From positions 1-20,593 of IMG/VR virus record IMGVR_UViG_3300042691_014324: a DNA stretch of 20,593 nucleotides. One strand, 5' to 3'. The translations under genes were made by a program, and so were the position numbers. The stretch's first letter is position 1. Each line of letters begins with the position of its first letter. Below, in pieces: positions 3,129 through 20,475 of this stretch. This DNA is from a virus. The notes under the pieces were generated by a model that saw nothing but the letters and a program-made list of their open reading frames with translations, was not told the origin of the DNA and made no database searches.

Positions 3129-4430
3129 GTGTCTAACTCCCTCCTTTCCCCCAAGGTCTACGCCAACGTCGGCCTTAAGCTCCTGAAGAACAACCTCGTC
3201 GCGGCCAAGCTGGTCTCTGGCGAGTACAAGGACATGGTGGTCAAGCCGATCCAGCGGAACGGCCAGGCCAACGGCACGACCGTCTATGTCAAGCGTCCGC
3301 CCGAGTTCACCGTCCGCGATGGTGCGGTTGCCTCGGTGCAAGACGTGGTTGAAGGCGAAATCGCCGTGACCATCGACAAGCAGAAGGGCATCGATGTCGA
3401 GTTCACCTCGCTTGAGGAGACCTTGACCGTTGACAGCCTCCTGAAGTCGAAGGTGATGGCGTCGGCCATGAGCCGTCTCGCCAACCAGATCGACGGCGAT
3501 ATCCATGCCGTGACCAAGCAATTTTATTCTTGGGTCGGCACGCCCGGTCAGGCGATCAACAGCTATGCGGACCTGACCAAGGCTCCGCAGCGCCTCGACG
3601 AGCAAGCGGTGGAAACCGATGGTCGCGTCGGCTTCATGCACCCCTCGGATGCGTGGGCCATGCTCGGCAGCCTGTCGGGCCTGACCGCTCAGACCAAGGA
3701 AGCCACTGACGCGCTCACCCGCGCCAAGCTCCCGGTGCTGGGCAACATCGACTGGTATTCAACCCAGAACGCGGCGACGGTCACGACCGGCACGCGCGAC
3801 GGGAACGCGGTCATCGACGGCGCGAACCAGGATGTGGCCTACTCGGAAGTCGCTTCGGGCAACTGGACGCAGACGCTGTCGATTGACAACGTCGGCAACG
3901 CCAAGACCGTCACGGCGGGCGAGGTGTTCACGATTGCGGACGTTTACGCGGTCAACCCGATCACCAAGGAGCGTCTGGACTACCTCCAGCAGTTCACGGT
4001 GATTACGGGCGGCACCTCGACGGCGACCGCCACGGGCAACGACCAGAACCTCGACCTCACGATCACCCCGCCGATCATTTCGTCGGGTGCGTTCCAGACG
4101 GTTTCCTGCCGAGGCACGTCCTCGACGGCGCCGGATGACAACGCCGCGATCCAGTGGATGGGTTCCGACACCGAGGCCGACACGGACAACACCACGTACA
4201 AGTTTGCGACCGTCTTCCGCCCGGAAGCCATCGCGCTTGTGTCTGCAAAGCTGATCATGCCGTACTCGGGTGAGTCGGAATATGCGACCGACCCCGAAAC
4301 CGGCCTGACGCTGCGCTACTGGCGTTCGTCCGACTCCACCAACGACACGCACATGCACCGCTTCGACGTGGTGTACGGCGTGAAGAACGTGGACAAGCGT
4401 CGCGGCGTCCGCCTCTCCGGCACGGCCTAA
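3129..4430 (+). CDS. Major capsid (coat) protein, P22 gp5 type
   Basis: This 433-residue protein is the probable shell subunit, an HK97-fold coat of the P22 gp5 family (P22 gp5 is 430 residues). Features that match: the N-terminal helix segment 'LLKNNLVAAKLV', an early beta region 'TVYVKRPPEFTVRDG', an acidic 'DVEFTSLEETLTVDSLL' helix, and the 'DGRVGFMHPSDAWAML' segment in the middle. An inserted domain spans about residues 230-330 (VTAGEVFTIADVYAVNP, then LQQFTVITGG), corresponding to the I-domain insertion of P22-type coats. The start is GTG with AAGGA nine bases upstream, and no ATG in frame gives a sensible alternative. It follows the scaffold by 29 bases and is followed by a terminator-like hairpin, as expected for the most heavily made protein. 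Confidence 0.9.
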   Translation: MSNSLLSPKVYANVGLKLLKNNLVAAKLVSGEYKDMVVKPIQRNGQANGTTVYVKRPPEFTVRDGAVASVQDVVEGEIAVTIDKQKGIDVEFTSLEETLTVDSLLKSKVMASAMSRLANQIDGDIHAVTKQFYSWVGTPGQAINSYADLTKAPQRLDEQAVETDGRVGFMHPSDAWAMLGSLSGLTAQTKEATDALTRAKLPVLGNIDWYSTQNAATVTTGTRDGNAVIDGANQDVAYSEVASGNWTQTLSIDNVGNAKTVTAGEVFTIADVYAVNPITKERLDYLQQFTVITGGTSTATATGNDQNLDLTITPPIISSGAFQTVSCRGTSSTAPDDNAAIQWMGSDTEADTDNTTYKFATVFRPEAIALVSAKLIMPYSGESEYATDPETGLTLRYWRSSDSTNDTHMHRFDVVYGVKNVDKRRGVRLSGTA

Positions 4431-4492: not shown

Positions 4493-4729
4493 ATGACTGC
4501 TGAAGTTGTTGGCCGCGCCCCTGCGGACGGCCTCAAGGTGGGTCAAGCCACCTCCCACCTGATCGGCTTTTACGGCACGACGGCGATCAGCCAACGCGCC
4601 GGCGCCGCCCAGGCCACCTCGCTCGTCGCAACCGCCTCTTCGGCGGACGTGACCACCGACCTGAAGGCAGCGGTGATCGAGATCATGAACACCTTGACCA
4701 ATCTCGGTTTGTGGAAGGGCTCGGCCTAA
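4493..4729 (+). CDS. Small head-fibre-like / decoration protein
   Basis: This is a 78-residue protein with the layout seen in many small phage proteins annotated as head fibre proteins (the phi29 gp8.5-like family). It has a 'TSHLIGFYGTTAISQRAGAAQA' block (residues about 20-41), a Thr/Ser/Ala-rich stretch, and a C-terminal helix 'DLKAAVIEIMNTLTNLGLWKGSA'. In this family the C-terminal helical part is thought to trimerise and sit on the capsid surface. It directly follows the coat gene and has a good Shine-Dalgarno (GAAAGGA). The stop overlaps the next start (TAATG). Family recognition is by pattern only; a role as capsid decoration is likely but not certain. Confidence 0.6.
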   Translation: MTAEVVGRAPADGLKVGQATSHLIGFYGTTAISQRAGAAQATSLVATASSADVTTDLKAAVIEIMNTLTNLGLWKGSA

Positions 4730-5235
4730 TGCGGAAGGTTCTTCACGTCGGTTGCGGACGTTCTCCGCTTCCGGCGTGGATGACCGACTGCGACGAAACC
4801 CGGCTGGACATCGACCCTGGTGTCCAGCCGGATGTCGTGGCCTCGATGCTCGACATGGGCGAGATCGGTGGCTTCGACATGGTTTATTCCAGCCACTCGC
4901 TGGAACACGTCTACCCGCACGAGGTCCCGGTGGCCCTTGCGGAGATGTATCGGGTCCTTAAGCCGGGCGGGGTGGTGGTGGCGGTTGTCCCCAACCTCGA
5001 CGGCGTGAAGCCCGACGACGAGGTGCTTTATGTGTCGGACGGCGGCCATCACGTCACCGGGCGCGATATGTTTTGGGGGATGCGCAGCCTCCTAATGGAA
5101 GAGCCGCACATGGCCCACCATACGGGTTTTGTGCCAGCGACACTGGCGAGTGCGCTTGAGGCGGTGGGCTTTCAGGGTGTCCATCCTCGCGCGCTACCGT
5201 TCTGGAACCTTCTCTGCGTGGGCGTGAAGCCTTGA
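4729..5235 (+). CDS. Class I SAM-dependent methyltransferase
   Basis: This 168-residue Rossmann-type methyltransferase resembles the Methyltransf_11 group. Motif I is VLHVGCG (residues 4-10) for SAM binding, an acidic RLDIDP (25-30) ends strand 2, DMVYSSHSLEHV (50-61) covers motif II, and MYRVLKPGG (73-81) is the usual post-motif turn. It is compact and has no separate target-recognition domain. That argues against a DNA methylase and for a small molecule, sugar or protein substrate. The chosen start is ATG 4729, overlapping the previous stop, with GGAAGGG upstream; an upstream GTG at 4711 would add six residues. It is translationally coupled to a glycosyltransferase downstream, so methylation of a sugar or of a virion protein is the natural guess. 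The substrate is unknown. Confidence 0.82.
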   Translation: MRKVLHVGCGRSPLPAWMTDCDETRLDIDPGVQPDVVASMLDMGEIGGFDMVYSSHSLEHVYPHEVPVALAEMYRVLKPGGVVVAVVPNLDGVKPDDEVLYVSDGGHHVTGRDMFWGMRSLLMEEPHMAHHTGFVPATLASALEAVGFQGVHPRALPFWNLLCVGVKP

Positions 5236-11696: not shown

Positions 11697-12488
11697 ATGC
11701 CCGCTGGATACGAAGTCGAAGACCCTGACACCGGCCAACGCGCATGGTGGGACGGCAAAAAGCTGACACCGCTTGACGCCAACGGGATGCCCGCGTCCGC
11801 GCAAGGGGGCGGAAAGCTGACTGGCGAGGAGCGCACGGCGGGCTTTTTGGGTCGCCGTGTCGCGGACTCCGCTCGCAATCTCGCCGATATCTCCCGCCGC
11901 AACCCTCGCGCGGATCGCCCCGGCGTGATCGAGGCCGGTGCGACCGCGATCAATCAACCCGGAATTGCCAATCTCTTTCGAAGTTCAGACCGCCAAAAGG
12001 TCTCGGTCAACGAGATTGATCTCTTGGACGCCGCGCTGACCCTTGGGACGGGCGCGGCTTACACGAAAGAGCAGCTTGAGGGGCAACGCTACACCTACTT
12101 CCCCGCGTTCACAGACAAGCCGGAAACGGTCCTAGAGAAGCGCCGCAAGCTCTTGAACCTTCTGGAAGCGGCCAAAATCAAGGCGGGTGGCGCGGCCCCC
12201 CCGATGATTGATGAGGCCATCTTGGCCGCGCAAGAGCAGTACGGGATGAAGCCCGGAAGCCCGGCCAACCCCACCATGTTGACGAGTCAAAACCGGGCGT
12301 CCATTAAGCCTGGAGACCGTTTCCGCGCGGGCGACGGTAGAGTTTACACGCACACGCCCGGCGCTGGCTACCGCCCCGGCGGCGCTCCCGCAAAGCCTGC
12401 TCAGGGTGGACGCGGCAACCTTCCCCCCGGCGTGACGGCGGCTGAATGGTCGGCCATGACCCCGCAAGAAAGGGCGCTCTTCAAGTGA
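11697..12488 (+). CDS. Probable structural/internal virion protein (third of four)
   Basis: This is a 263-residue protein with AGGGAG seven bases before its ATG. Early segments (PAGYEVEDPDTGQRAWWDGKK) resemble a small beta domain. The core 'LDAALTLGTGAAYTKEQLEGQ' then 'TYFPAFTDKPETVLEKRRKLLNLLEAAKIKAG' (about residues 108-165) is a block that recurs in phage internal or tail proteins: TGAAYTxEQLEGxRxxYFP, then PETVxxKxxRLxxLIEAAxxKAG. The C-terminal third is Pro/Gly-rich, with 'KPGDRFRAGDGRVYTHTPGAGY' and a terminal 'SAMTPQERALFK'. Function is not known with confidence. Position between ejection-type proteins suggests a virion component. Confidence 0.6.
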   Translation: MPAGYEVEDPDTGQRAWWDGKKLTPLDANGMPASAQGGGKLTGEERTAGFLGRRVADSARNLADISRRNPRADRPGVIEAGATAINQPGIANLFRSSDRQKVSVNEIDLLDAALTLGTGAAYTKEQLEGQRYTYFPAFTDKPETVLEKRRKLLNLLEAAKIKAGGAAPPMIDEAILAAQEQYGMKPGSPANPTMLTSQNRASIKPGDRFRAGDGRVYTHTPGAGYRPGGAPAKPAQGGRGNLPPGVTAAEWSAMTPQERALFK

Positions 12489-14035
12489 GCATGACCCTTG
12501 AACAACAGCGCGCCATTGCGCTCGCCAGAGCCCGCGTCCGCGCGGGGAAGTCGGGGGGCGGCCCTGTGGAGGCCGTCACCGGCTTCATGGCGAACTTCAA
12601 TCGCGGGTCCGGCATCGGTGACGAACTGGCGGCGGCTGGCGGTGTTGTTACCGGCCTATTCACCGGGCGCCACAAGCTGACGGACAACGCCGCTGAGGCG
12701 TACCGCCGCGAGCTTGGGTATCAGCGCGGCGCGGAAGACCAATACGCGACGACCAACCCGAACGCGGCGGCGCTCGCGCGTGGAACCGGCATGGCGGCGA
12801 CCGTAGCTGTCCCGGCCGGCAATACGGCGAACCTGTTTAATCAGGGCGTTCGCGTGGCAGGCCGACAGGTGCCGCAAGTGCTGGCCAACGCGGCGCGCGG
12901 TAGCGGCATCGCGGCGACACAGGCGGGCATCTATGCCGCTACGGATCGGGGAACGCTGGCCGAACGTGGCGAGGCCATGGGCCGCGCGATGATCGACCCT
13001 CTGACGCTGGCGTTCGGGGCAGGCGGCGGCGCGCTCGCCACGCAACGCCGTGGAAAACCCCAGGCCGCGCCTGCTTATCCCACGGTTGCGGAGTTGGGGC
13101 AGAAGAAGCGCGACCTTTACACGCAAGCCAACGCCAGCGGCTTCACGTTTGCTGACAATGATATTCGGGGGCTTGCCCAAAGGGTTACGGCTGAGTTCCA
13201 AAAGCGCGCCGGCAGCGGTCCTGAAGGCAAGATGGCGCTCCCCATCAGCAACACCCTTCGCGCCCGCCTAGATGAAATGGCGAACACCGGGAATGTCACG
13301 CTTGAGCAGTTGGACAACCTGCGGGCCGACGCTTACGAAATGGCCGTGGCGCAAGGTGGGGCCGAGTCCGTTATCGGACGGTTCCTCCGCAGCGAGATCG
13401 ACCAGCTAATGGACGGCTACAACGTCCCGCTGATCAAGGAAGCCCGCCAGGCCAACACGCAATGGATGAAGGCCAGGGAAATTGCGAACCGCCAACGCTC
13501 TGGCGAGCTAGGCGCGGCGTCGGCCAATAGCGGGCAAAACGTCGTCAACGCCCAACGCGCCAAAATCCGCCCGACGATTGACCCGCTCCACAGTAGCGAA
13601 ATCACCAACTGGACCCCGGATGAGGCCGCCGCCGTAGAGCGCGTGGTCATGGGTAGCCCCGAAGGGAACAAGCTGCGCGACCGCAGCAACTTCCTTCGTA
13701 ACCCTATCGTCGGAAGCGGCGCCGCTGCGGTCGGCGCGGCCATGGGCATCGGCGGCGGGCCGGTAGGGTCCGCAACGCTCGGCATCGGGATCCCCGCATT
13801 TATGCAATTTGCGGGGCAGCACTACCGCAAGCGGGCGGAAGACGTGACCCGCAGGGAAATCGAAGAGCTTATGCGCTTGATCGCGGAAGGGCGTCTTCAG
13901 GCCCCGGTCGTGCGCGCCCCGGCCCCCCCACCCTTAGTGTCGGGTCCGGAGGCGGTAAGGCTTTCAAGGGCGGCGGGAGTGCAAGGCGGCGCGGCGGCTT
14001 CCGAAGCCCAGCCAAACTACTTCGCACGGCCCTAG
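12485..14035 (+). CDS. Large Ala/Gly-rich internal virion (ejection) protein (fourth of four)
   Basis: This is a 516-residue protein. The start is taken as GTG 12485, overlapping the previous TGA (GTGA), because AAAGGG lies at better spacing to it than to ATG 12491. The N-terminal segment (GFMANFNRGSGIGDELAAAGGVVTGLFTG) and 'TTNPNAAALARGTGMAATVAVPAG' carry Gly/Ala-rich helices of the kind that could insert in membranes. A charged helical middle follows (residues about 210-400), with DLYTQANASGF and LDNLRADAYEM. Near residues 405-445 there is another Gly/Ala-rich hydrophobic stretch (GSGAAAVGAAMGIGGG), then a basic helix and a disordered Pro-rich end. Length and composition resemble P22 gp16, the largest ejection protein, but I see no clear sequence proof of homology. 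Confidence 0.62.
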   Translation: MSMTLEQQRAIALARARVRAGKSGGGPVEAVTGFMANFNRGSGIGDELAAAGGVVTGLFTGRHKLTDNAAEAYRRELGYQRGAEDQYATTNPNAAALARGTGMAATVAVPAGNTANLFNQGVRVAGRQVPQVLANAARGSGIAATQAGIYAATDRGTLAERGEAMGRAMIDPLTLAFGAGGGALATQRRGKPQAAPAYPTVAELGQKKRDLYTQANASGFTFADNDIRGLAQRVTAEFQKRAGSGPEGKMALPISNTLRARLDEMANTGNVTLEQLDNLRADAYEMAVAQGGAESVIGRFLRSEIDQLMDGYNVPLIKEARQANTQWMKAREIANRQRSGELGAASANSGQNVVNAQRAKIRPTIDPLHSSEITNWTPDEAAAVERVVMGSPEGNKLRDRSNFLRNPIVGSGAAAVGAAMGIGGGPVGSATLGIGIPAFMQFAGQHYRKRAEDVTRREIEELMRLIAEGRLQAPVVRAPAPPPLVSGPEAVRLSRAAGVQGGAAASEAQPNYFARP

Positions 14036-14150
14036 CGCACCACTTCCAGGCCAGCACGCCAGCCCACACAAACAGGAAGCCGCCGGGAAGCACGGTGCTT
14101 TCCTTGGCCAGCCGTTCGGCGAGTTCCCAGCGGATCGGGGGCTCTGTCAC
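13869..14150 (-). CDS. Candidate minus-strand small membrane protein
   Basis: This is a 93-residue frame opposite to all its neighbours. GTG at 14150-14148 is preceded by AGGGGG at ideal spacing. Residues 1-38 lie in the only real gap between + strand genes. Their codons use G or C in third position in 31 of 38 cases (hand count), as real genes here do. The N-terminus is charged and helical (TEPPIRWELAERLAKES) and is followed by one probable membrane helix, VLPGGFLFVWAGVLAWKW (about 19-36), then basic residues. The rest (about 44-93) is Pro/Arg-rich and antisense to the end of the preceding gene, so this tail may be fortuitous. P22 carries the membrane exclusion gene sieA, on the opposite strand, in the same place, between the last ejection gene and the tailspike. 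A similar moron role is a guess. A decayed gene fragment is the main alternative. Confidence 0.42.
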   Translation of the reverse strand: MTEPPIRWELAERLAKESTVLPGGFLFVWAGVLAWKWCARAVRSSLAGLRKPPRRLALPPPLKALPPPDPTLRVGGPGRARPGPEDALPRSSA

Positions 14151-14156
14151 GCCCCC
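14137..14156. other. GC hairpin over the start of the minus-strand ORF
   Basis: GGGGGC (14137-14142) pairs perfectly with GCCCCC (14151-14156) across an eight-base loop. On the minus strand one arm is the ribosome binding site and the loop contains the GTG start of the candidate membrane protein. On the + strand no T-run follows, so it is a poor terminator. It may regulate the minus-strand gene or arise by chance from the Shine-Dalgarno and Pro codons. Confidence 0.35.
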
Positions 14157-14176
14157 TCATACCACAAGAGGCTTAG

Positions 14177-15214
14177 ATGGCCCAACTTCTCGACTCCCGA
14201 TTTCTCCTGACCGATGCGTCTAACGTCGTTCAGAACGCGGCCAAACTGAGAATCTATGATGCCGGCACGTCCAATTTAACGTCCGTGTTCTCAGACGCTG
14301 GCCTGACAACGCCGCTCACCAACCCCGTTGTGGCGTCATCCTCGGGCATCTTGCCCCAGGTGTTCGCCGCTGAAGGGACGGTGGTGGACCTGCAATGGCT
14401 CACCTCGGCTGACGTGAGCATATCGGGCCGGTCCTACGAGGATGTGACCTTCGTTGGGGCCGATACGGGCGACATCACCCGCACGGTGACGGGGAACGCC
14501 CGCTTCAAGCTCACCGGCTCCGGCGGGGCGAATCTCTGGCAAGTGGGCGACGCATCGCCGGACAACCTGGGCGGGACCCTAACGATAGAAGGCTGGGCGG
14601 GCAGTCAAGGCGACACGCTCACGCTGGATTTCGCCACCGTCAACGCCTCGGGCCGCATCAAGGAACAATCGAAAAAGATCGAAGGCACGGTCTACACCGA
14701 GGCCACGCAGGTCACGGCGCAGACGTCGGTTGACATCACCCTGCCGAACGATCCGACCGGATGCCGGGCTTGGGAAATCCACATCTGGGATTACTCGCAA
14801 AGCGGGAACGCCACGCTTCAAGCGCGCCTCAGCTACGACAGCGGCGGAACGTACAAGTCCGGCGCGGGTGATTATGACAGCTATTGGTTCCAATCCACGA
14901 CCGGCGGGTCGGTTTCACCAACCGGCCTGACGACAGGCGCGGAAGGGCAGCTTTCCAGTAACCTCAACGGCGCGGCGAATCAGCTAGGCGGCGGCGTCAT
15001 TCGCGTCATCACGCCGGACAGCGGGACCACGTTCACAAAGTTGGACGCCGACCTCTCGGGCATCATCAACACCGGGGCCGGGTCGATATTCCGCGCAACG
15101 ATGTTCGGTAAGGGCTCCTACGGGCGCGCGACGCACCTTCGCCTGCTGATGAGCGCCAACAACTTCACGTTCAAATATCGCGTCGTCCCGCTTCGCGGCT
15201 TCGGAGAGACCTGA
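14177..15214 (+). CDS. Tail fibre/spike protein with adaptor-type N-terminus
   Basis: This is a 345-residue protein with AAGAGG before its ATG. Residues 1-100 (LDSRFLLTDASNVVQNAAKL, then AGTSNLTSVFSDAGLTTPLTNPVVASSSG) match the N-terminal module common in phage tail fibres and spikes. In that module a short beta domain with 'Y-x-AGT-x-x-x-x-x-x-SDA-x-LTTP-x-x-NPV' anchors the fibre to the virion. The remainder is beta-rich (SVDITLPNDPTGCRAWEIHI, TLQARLSYDSGGTYKSGAG) and looks like a jelly-roll or carbohydrate-binding-like domain, with no beta-helix repeats. It is overlapped by the next gene (TGATGG, ATG at 15214). It may be the base or adaptor to which the following beta-helix proteins attach. 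Confidence 0.7.
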   Translation: MAQLLDSRFLLTDASNVVQNAAKLRIYDAGTSNLTSVFSDAGLTTPLTNPVVASSSGILPQVFAAEGTVVDLQWLTSADVSISGRSYEDVTFVGADTGDITRTVTGNARFKLTGSGGANLWQVGDASPDNLGGTLTIEGWAGSQGDTLTLDFATVNASGRIKEQSKKIEGTVYTEATQVTAQTSVDITLPNDPTGCRAWEIHIWDYSQSGNATLQARLSYDSGGTYKSGAGDYDSYWFQSTTGGSVSPTGLTTGAEGQLSSNLNGAANQLGGGVIRVITPDSGTTFTKLDADLSGIINTGAGSIFRATMFGKGSYGRATHLRLLMSANNFTFKYRVVPLRGFGET

Positions 15215-19740: not shown

Positions 19741-20475
19741 ATGAGACCGATTCCGCCGCAGGCGCTGGCTATTGTCAAAGAGTTCGAGGGCTTGAAGCTC
19801 GTCGGCTACCTCTGCCCGGCGGGGGTGCCAACGGCGGGGTGGGGGCATACCGGCGACGATGTGCGCGTCGGCGTCCGCTACACCCGCGACAGGGCCGAGG
19901 CGTGGCTTCGCGCCGACCTGCAACACGCCGCCAACCGCCTGGCGGGCGTGGTCAAGCCCGACGTGCTGGCGGACCTTTCCGACCCGAAATATGCGGTTTT
20001 GCTATCCTTCGTCTTTAATTTGGGCGCCAAATCTAGCTGGACGATCTGGAAGCGGGTTAACGCGCGGAAGTTCGACCTTGTTCCGCCCGAGCTTATGCGG
20101 TTCGTGAACGCGGGCGGGAAGCGGCTTCCGGGCCTTGTGCGCCGTCGCGGAGCCGAAGCCGCGCTATGGGAAGAGGGCGAGGATGATGAGCCCGAAACGC
20201 CCCCGTCGTCAACCACGCGCATGATTGGGATGACGCCCCCGACGCCCGCGACCGAAAAGCCGTTGACGGTCAGCAAGACCATGTGGACGGGCGCGGGTGT
20301 GGCGGCCTCCGGCGTCGTGGCCGGCGCCCAACAGGTCCAGGCGTTGGTCGCGCCGCAGATGGCCTATTCGGAGCATCTGCAAACCCTGGGCGCTATCGTT
20401 GCGGGCCTGGTCGTCGCGGGCGGTATCGCGGTGATGGTGTTCAAATGGCTCGAGCAGCGCGGAAGGCGGCAGTGA
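19741..20475 (+). CDS. GH24 lysozyme-type endolysin with C-terminal membrane segment
   Basis: This 244-residue endolysin is predicted to cut the glycan strands of peptidoglycan. The catalytic triad fits the E-8-(D/C)-5-T pattern of phage lysozymes: E16 (KEFEGL), C25 (YLCPAG) and T31 (VPTAGWGHT). Cysteine stands where T4 lysozyme has aspartate, a known variant in phage lysozymes. The domain runs to about residue 145 (FVFNLGAKSSW, RFVNAGGKRLPGLVRRRGAEAALW). A Pro/Thr-rich linker (148-175) leads to a C-terminal region with a weak hydrophobic stretch (181-203) and a clear membrane helix (about 214-236, LGAIVAGLVVAGGIAVMVFKW) ending in basic residues. There is no N-terminal signal, so export would need a holin or the C-terminal helix. 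GAGG lies upstream of the ATG. Confidence 0.88.
   Translation: MRPIPPQALAIVKEFEGLKLVGYLCPAGVPTAGWGHTGDDVRVGVRYTRDRAEAWLRADLQHAANRLAGVVKPDVLADLSDPKYAVLLSFVFNLGAKSSWTIWKRVNARKFDLVPPELMRFVNAGGKRLPGLVRRRGAEAALWEEGEDDEPETPPSSTTRMIGMTPPTPATEKPLTVSKTMWTGAGVAASGVVAGAQQVQALVAPQMAYSEHLQTLGAIVAGLVVAGGIAVMVFKWLEQRGRRQ

What the first reader, a model, noticed from the sequence alone, without database searches (positions are those of the whole stretch)
13869..14150. Minus-strand membrane-protein ORF in the place where P22 carries sieA
Seen: the only sizeable + strand gap in the window holds a minus-strand frame with a strong AGGGGG ribosome binding site, high GC3 in the non-overlapping part (31 of 38 codons by hand) and one clear membrane helix. 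Known: in P22 the region between the last ejection gene (16) and the tailspike gene (9) is an accessory spot with opposite-strand genes, including the membrane superinfection-exclusion gene sieA. Inference: this may be a small undescribed moron, perhaps blocking DNA entry by related phages. The Pro/Arg-rich C-terminal half overlaps the preceding gene and may be accidental, or the whole may be a decaying fragment.
Basis: partly seen in the sequence, partly recalled or inferred. Interest (0 to 1): 0.65.

Follow-up and report, generated by a model that had tools for sequence, protein, structure and literature searches.

The report
Hidden antisense membrane gene in podophages
The small backwards-reading frame is a real gene for a one-helix membrane protein; it belongs to a rapidly swapped set of such genes that related short-tailed phages keep at the spot where phage P22 keeps its superinfection-exclusion gene, so it probably helps an infected or lysogenic cell keep out related phages.

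Summary
The minus-strand ORF at 13869-14150 is a genuine, unannotated protein-coding gene.

Related frames occur on the same strand, directly after the last ejection gene, in other IMG/VR phages and in Caulobacterales prophages. The non-overlapping part is under purifying selection (pN<pS in 15 of 15 pairs; best pair dN 0.03, dS 0.91).

Other relatives fill the slot with unrelated small membrane ORFs. Three phages sharing 300 bp of near-identical upstream DNA switch to non-homologous ORFs exactly at the start codon. Non-homologous ORFs share a promoter-like TGnTA element, with TA at exactly -12 in 14 of 21 leaders (4% of control genes), as in leaderless mRNAs.

P22 sieA has the same position, strand and its own promoter, but no sequence similarity was found. 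Best reading: a SieA-like superinfection-exclusion cassette acting at the inner membrane. That it is a gene is shown; exclusion is inferred (about 0.55).

The parts
13869..14150 (-). Antisense small membrane protein gene, 93 codons, GTG start (type A slot protein)
14040..14093 (-). Predicted membrane helix, about residues 20-37
   Evidence: hydropathy; low-confidence model, helix 20-50
13947..13979 (-). Codons for the conserved LPPPLKALPPP motif, inside the 3' end of the + strand ejection gene; dual-coding, minus frame constrained
13869..13946 (-). C-terminal tail of the minus frame, not shared with relatives
14156..14164 (-). TGGTATGAG, extended -10-like element just before the start codon (TA at -11 here, -12 in most relatives)
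12446..14035 (+). Last ejection-type gene (529 aa), convergent with and overlapped by the minus gene; ejection role by position and by weak match of its homologue L018 to an annotated DNA ejection protein
14177..15214 (+). Tail gene (345 aa) starting divergently from the minus gene; distant N-terminal relatives are annotated tail spikes

Best explanation
It is a phage accessory (moron) gene for a small inner-membrane protein, held in a cassette slot convergent with the last ejection gene. A promoter-like element on the minus strand places the likely transcript start at or near the start codon, so the gene could be expressed when the late + strand operon is silent, as in a lysogen or soon after infection. 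The protein would sit in the inner membrane with a short acidic N-terminus outside and a basic, Pro-rich tail inside. There it would interfere with the ejection-protein conduit of incoming related phages and block DNA entry, as SieA does for P22. Shown here: a real gene, its conservation, the antisense constraint, cassette swapping and the fixed-position promoter-like signal. Inferred: membrane insertion, topology, expression in lysogens, and exclusion.
For: Homologues in the same antisense slot; purifying selection; minus-frame constraint in the overlap; unrelated small membrane ORFs in the same slot and strand; swap exactly at the start codon; shared TGnTA with TA at -12, the published leaderless signal (PMC3160421) in a host group with many leaderless mRNAs (PMC4117421); integrase in two relatives and prophages in Caulobacterales; P22 sieA at the same place and strand, an inner-membrane protein whose escape mutations map to the C-terminal regions of ejection proteins gp16 and gp20 (PMC10883804).
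Against: No sequence similarity to SieA and the ejection gene is not detectably related to P22 gp16. No transcript, membrane or exclusion data. SieA has 164 residues, this protein 93 with one helix. No defence-library match. Some slot occupants may be exported rather than membrane-bound (Microcystis phage). The motif could partly be a ribosome-binding site.
Confidence: 0.55

Rival explanations
1. A moron membrane protein that changes host physiology or the envelope (receptor masking, stress, motility) rather than blocking the DNA conduit.
For: Small single-helix membrane protein with its own promoter-like element and high turnover; no direct link to the conduit has been shown.
Against: The persistent position next to the ejection gene in many phages, as for sieA, is unexplained by a general host effect.
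Confidence: 0.25
2. A lysis-related protein (holin, antiholin or spanin).
For: Small membrane protein; in L011 the slot gene lies next to lysis genes.
Against: It is antisense to the late genes and 5.6 kb from the endolysin in the window; L011 has separate holin-like, endolysin and spanin-like genes; occupants turn over at the slot regardless of the lysis genes.
Confidence: 0.06
3. A regulatory antisense transcript over the end of the ejection gene, with the small ORF a side product or a second function.
For: The transcript would overlap the 3' end of the ejection gene; P22 has an antisense RNA, sar, nearby.
Against: Protein-level constraint is clear: dN far below dS and the minus amino acids kept in the overlap while its third positions vary.
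Confidence: 0.06
4. Chance open frame or decaying fragment.
For: 39 minus-strand ORFs of at least 90 aa occur in this GC-rich window.
Against: Purifying selection in every pair, frozen + third positions, fixed spacing of the promoter-like element, intact frames in the relatives found.
Confidence: 0.02

Closest known systems
P22 SieA superinfection exclusion (PHROG 7745; PMC10883804)
   Same: Between the last ejection gene and the tail gene, opposite strand, own promoter, membrane protein, several mutually dissimilar types at one place.
   Different: No detectable sequence similarity; one helix in 93 aa instead of a 164-aa protein with several predicted membrane segments; its 3' end overlaps the ejection gene (in P22 it stops 22 bp away); promoter-like element sits directly at the start codon; exclusion untested.
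HK97 gp15 superinfection exclusion (recalled; discussed in PMC10883804)
   Same: Predicted small inner-membrane protein of a temperate phage of a Gram-negative host.
   Different: Acts on long-tailed phages; no sequence comparison was made here.
Bacterial leaderless genes with TANNNT at about -12 (PMC3160421)
   Same: TA at -12 from the start codon, high-GC genomes, Caulobacter-type hosts.
   Different: The last T of the hexamer is not always present, the window's copy is at -11, and no transcript start has been mapped.

Membership tests
P22 SieA family | Gene lies between the homologues of genes 16 and 9 | tested here: met
   By position: between the last ejection-type gene and the tail gene; the ejection gene itself is not detectably homologous to gp16
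P22 SieA family | Opposite strand with its own promoter | tested here: met
   Strand met; promoter-like element at fixed position, transcription itself not tested
P22 SieA family | Sequence similarity to SieA (PHROG 7745) | tested here: not met
   hhalign of types A and B with SieA: no match; no PHROG hit for the window protein
P22 SieA family | Inner-membrane localisation | not testable with these tools
   Hydropathy and charge pattern agree
P22 SieA family | Blocks DNA injection of related podophages | not testable with these tools
   Needs an experiment
Holin/spanin | Part of the lysis cassette, co-oriented with the endolysin | tested here: not met
   Antisense and 5.6 kb from the endolysin in the window; L011 has a separate full lysis set
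Leaderless gene | TANNNT-like -10 element with first T at about -12 | tested here: inconclusive
   TA at -12 in 14 of 21 slot leaders against 4% of controls; window at -11; transcript start not mapped

The most novel reading that the evidence does not exclude
The boundary between the ejection genes and the tail gene of P22-type podophages is a general, largely unannotated exclusion locus. Antisense small membrane or exported proteins are expressed there from a conserved near-leaderless promoter in phages of alpha- and betaproteobacteria and cyanobacteria, with sieA as one occupant. Because the gene overlaps the end of the ejection gene, swapping the cassette also exchanges the C-terminus of the ejection protein, which may be its target.
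Probability: 0.35. Interest if true: 0.75.

Novelty: new variant of a known kind. Interest (0 to 1): 0.6.

Why it matters
Exclusion genes are hard to find because they are short, fast-changing and often antisense to annotated genes. A slot that can be recognised by position plus a fixed promoter-like signal gives a way to list candidate exclusion proteins in many podophages and test them. It is also a clear case of selected antisense dual coding, and it raises a testable idea of why excluder and ejection-protein tail might be inherited together.

Tried and rejected
Pfam, PHROGs, NCBIfam, PADLOC and PDB searches of the slot proteins gave nothing or only weak hits judged to be chance. tblastn of the first 45 residues in GenBank phages: none. 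The genome-contig scan with the three-sequence alignment A1: none; a DNA pattern for PPPLKALPPP then found the Caulobacter prophage (the other three genome hits, L036, L038 and L039, look like chance). A wide ejection-protein alignment was too diverse to scan with. In Caulobacterales genomes only two matches of the small-protein profile lay at the slot (G001, G326); the other weak ones (E 7e-4 to 0.008) were not followed. Folding gave one confident helix and a disordered tail, so no fold search was made. A sigma-70 scan found no full promoter. Shine-Dalgarno as sole explanation of the leader motif is disfavoured because the TG and TA are fixed in spacing, but it is not excluded. A conserved DNA site as the cause of the overlap conservation is disfavoured because the positions free in the minus code do vary.

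Full report
Observation. The frame 13869-14150 (-), GTG start, 93 codons, is present as described. Its length is not remarkable: 39 minus-strand ORFs of 90 aa or more exist in the window. The window is a virus record of 20,593 bases with a P22-like order: portal, scaffold, coat, head closure, ejection, tail genes, lysozyme.

Is it a gene? The 93-residue frame retrieved relatives in three IMG/VR contigs and a small alignment a fourth; two of these contigs carry near copies of one phage. A DNA pattern for PPPLKALPPP retrieved seven viral contigs and the prophage of Caulobacter sp. 602-1. The relatives lie directly after the ejection gene on the opposite strand. In most the next gene is the tail gene; in L011 it is a lysis-type gene and in L072 an HNH endonuclease gene stands between. 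In 39 non-overlapping codons of six phages, pN is below pS in all 15 pairs; L018 against L012 has dN 0.03 and dS 0.91, the window against L011 dN 0.27 and dS 1.33.

The overlap. The 3' part runs over the end of the ejection gene. In the LPPPLKALPPP block, minus second positions face + third positions. Across seven phages all 10 + third positions are invariant, even where the + amino acid changes (R/T/A, A/V/T), against 9 of 401 in the rest of the gene (Fisher p about 3e-15; 5 of 5 against 2 of 37 when only columns with an invariant + residue are counted). Minus third positions vary in 6 of 11. So the minus reading is the constrained one. The last ~25 residues in the window are not shared, and some relatives lack the motif (L072, L071, L027).

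The slot. Relatives of the neighbouring genes show other occupants on the same strand: type B (L022, L024, L025), an RGDY/PGEDE type (L037, L069, L045, and the shorter L071), and single ORFs in L007, L046, L031 and L033. Types A and B are not detectably related. L013, L022 and L007 share the 300 bp upstream of the start at 84-100% identity per 50-bp bin and drop to 26-46% at the start codon, the mark of cassette exchange. L013 and L022 also have ejection proteins without convincing similarity to each other. In phages of other hosts, unannotated antisense ORFs were seen in the slots of Rhodoferax phage P26218 and Pseudanabaena phages Pam1 and Pan3, and an annotated one in a Microcystis phage. 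These are single examples, and the Pam1 and Pan3 ORFs are tentative. Not every podophage has one: L028 and Pseudoalteromonas H6/1 have no gap.

Expression signal. The leaders of non-homologous slot ORFs share TGnTA just before the start. TA is at exactly -12 in 14 of 21, or 12 of 19 after removing two near-identical leaders, against 4% of 150 control genes. In L045 the motif was found blind, just before an internal ATG. A few starts are uncertain (L045, L027, L072). TANNNT at about -12 is the published signal of bacterial leaderless genes (PMC3160421), and Caulobacter crescentus has 375 leaderless mRNAs (PMC4117421). The window's copy is one base closer (TA at -11). No -35 was found and no transcript was tested; a Shine-Dalgarno role for the G-rich leader is not excluded.

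Protein. Hydropathy and a low-confidence model (pLDDT 66) give a short helix 7-17, a helix 20-50 and a disordered tail. Type A net charges are 0 to -3 before and +3 to +8 after the hydrophobic stretch, which points to N-out/C-in by the positive-inside rule (inference). In 340 control antisense ORFs only 14% reach a hydropathy of 1.5, while 14 of 16 slot ORFs do. No library knows the family.

What it works like. P22 sieA sits right after gene 16 on the minus strand with its own promoter. [quoted passage not shown] The slot here matches in position, strand, membrane character and diversity of types, but not in sequence. I therefore say that it works like SieA with moderate confidence, and do not file it as a SieA member.

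Life style. Integrase genes occur in two relatives and others are prophages in Caulobacterales genomes, so at least part of the group is temperate. Among 398 Caulobacterales genomes only three carried the ejection gene, so the group is not common there.

Noticed in passing
L074 4254-4517 (-), L078 2802-2906 (-), L080 9721-9882 (-): Unannotated antisense ORFs with hydrophobic stretches in the ejection/tail slot of Pseudanabaena phages Pam1 and Pan3 and Rhodoferax phage P26218; in Pan3 TA is at -12 and in P26218 at -13.
   Followed up: partly
L079 4661-4990 (-): A Microcystis phage carries an annotated antisense hypothetical protein in the slot that begins like a signal peptide (MKKLICAAALVALPSPALA), so some occupants may be exported rather than membrane-bound.
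   Followed up: partly
L074, L078 and L079 slots; L012 and L037 slots: The slot of the cyanophages holds what looks like a + strand intrinsic terminator (GC hairpin then T run) just before the tail gene; weaker GC-rich hairpins stand at the same place in L012 and L037. Seen by eye only.
   Followed up: no
L072 6669-7160 (+): An HNH endonuclease gene (PHROG 99, Pfam HNH_3) is inserted between the slot gene and the tail gene.
   Followed up: partly
window 12446-14035: The ejection-type protein matches phrog_21712, which is labelled 'major head protein'; the label is probably wrong, since the coat gene is at 3129-4430.
   Followed up: no
window 4711-5235: A weak methyltransferase-like gene sits inside the structural cluster just after the coat gene.
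   Followed up: no
window 19741-20475: The phage lysozyme has a strongly hydrophobic stretch near its C-terminus (19-residue hydropathy 2.52 at residue 216); a similar gene in L060 has it too.
   Followed up: no
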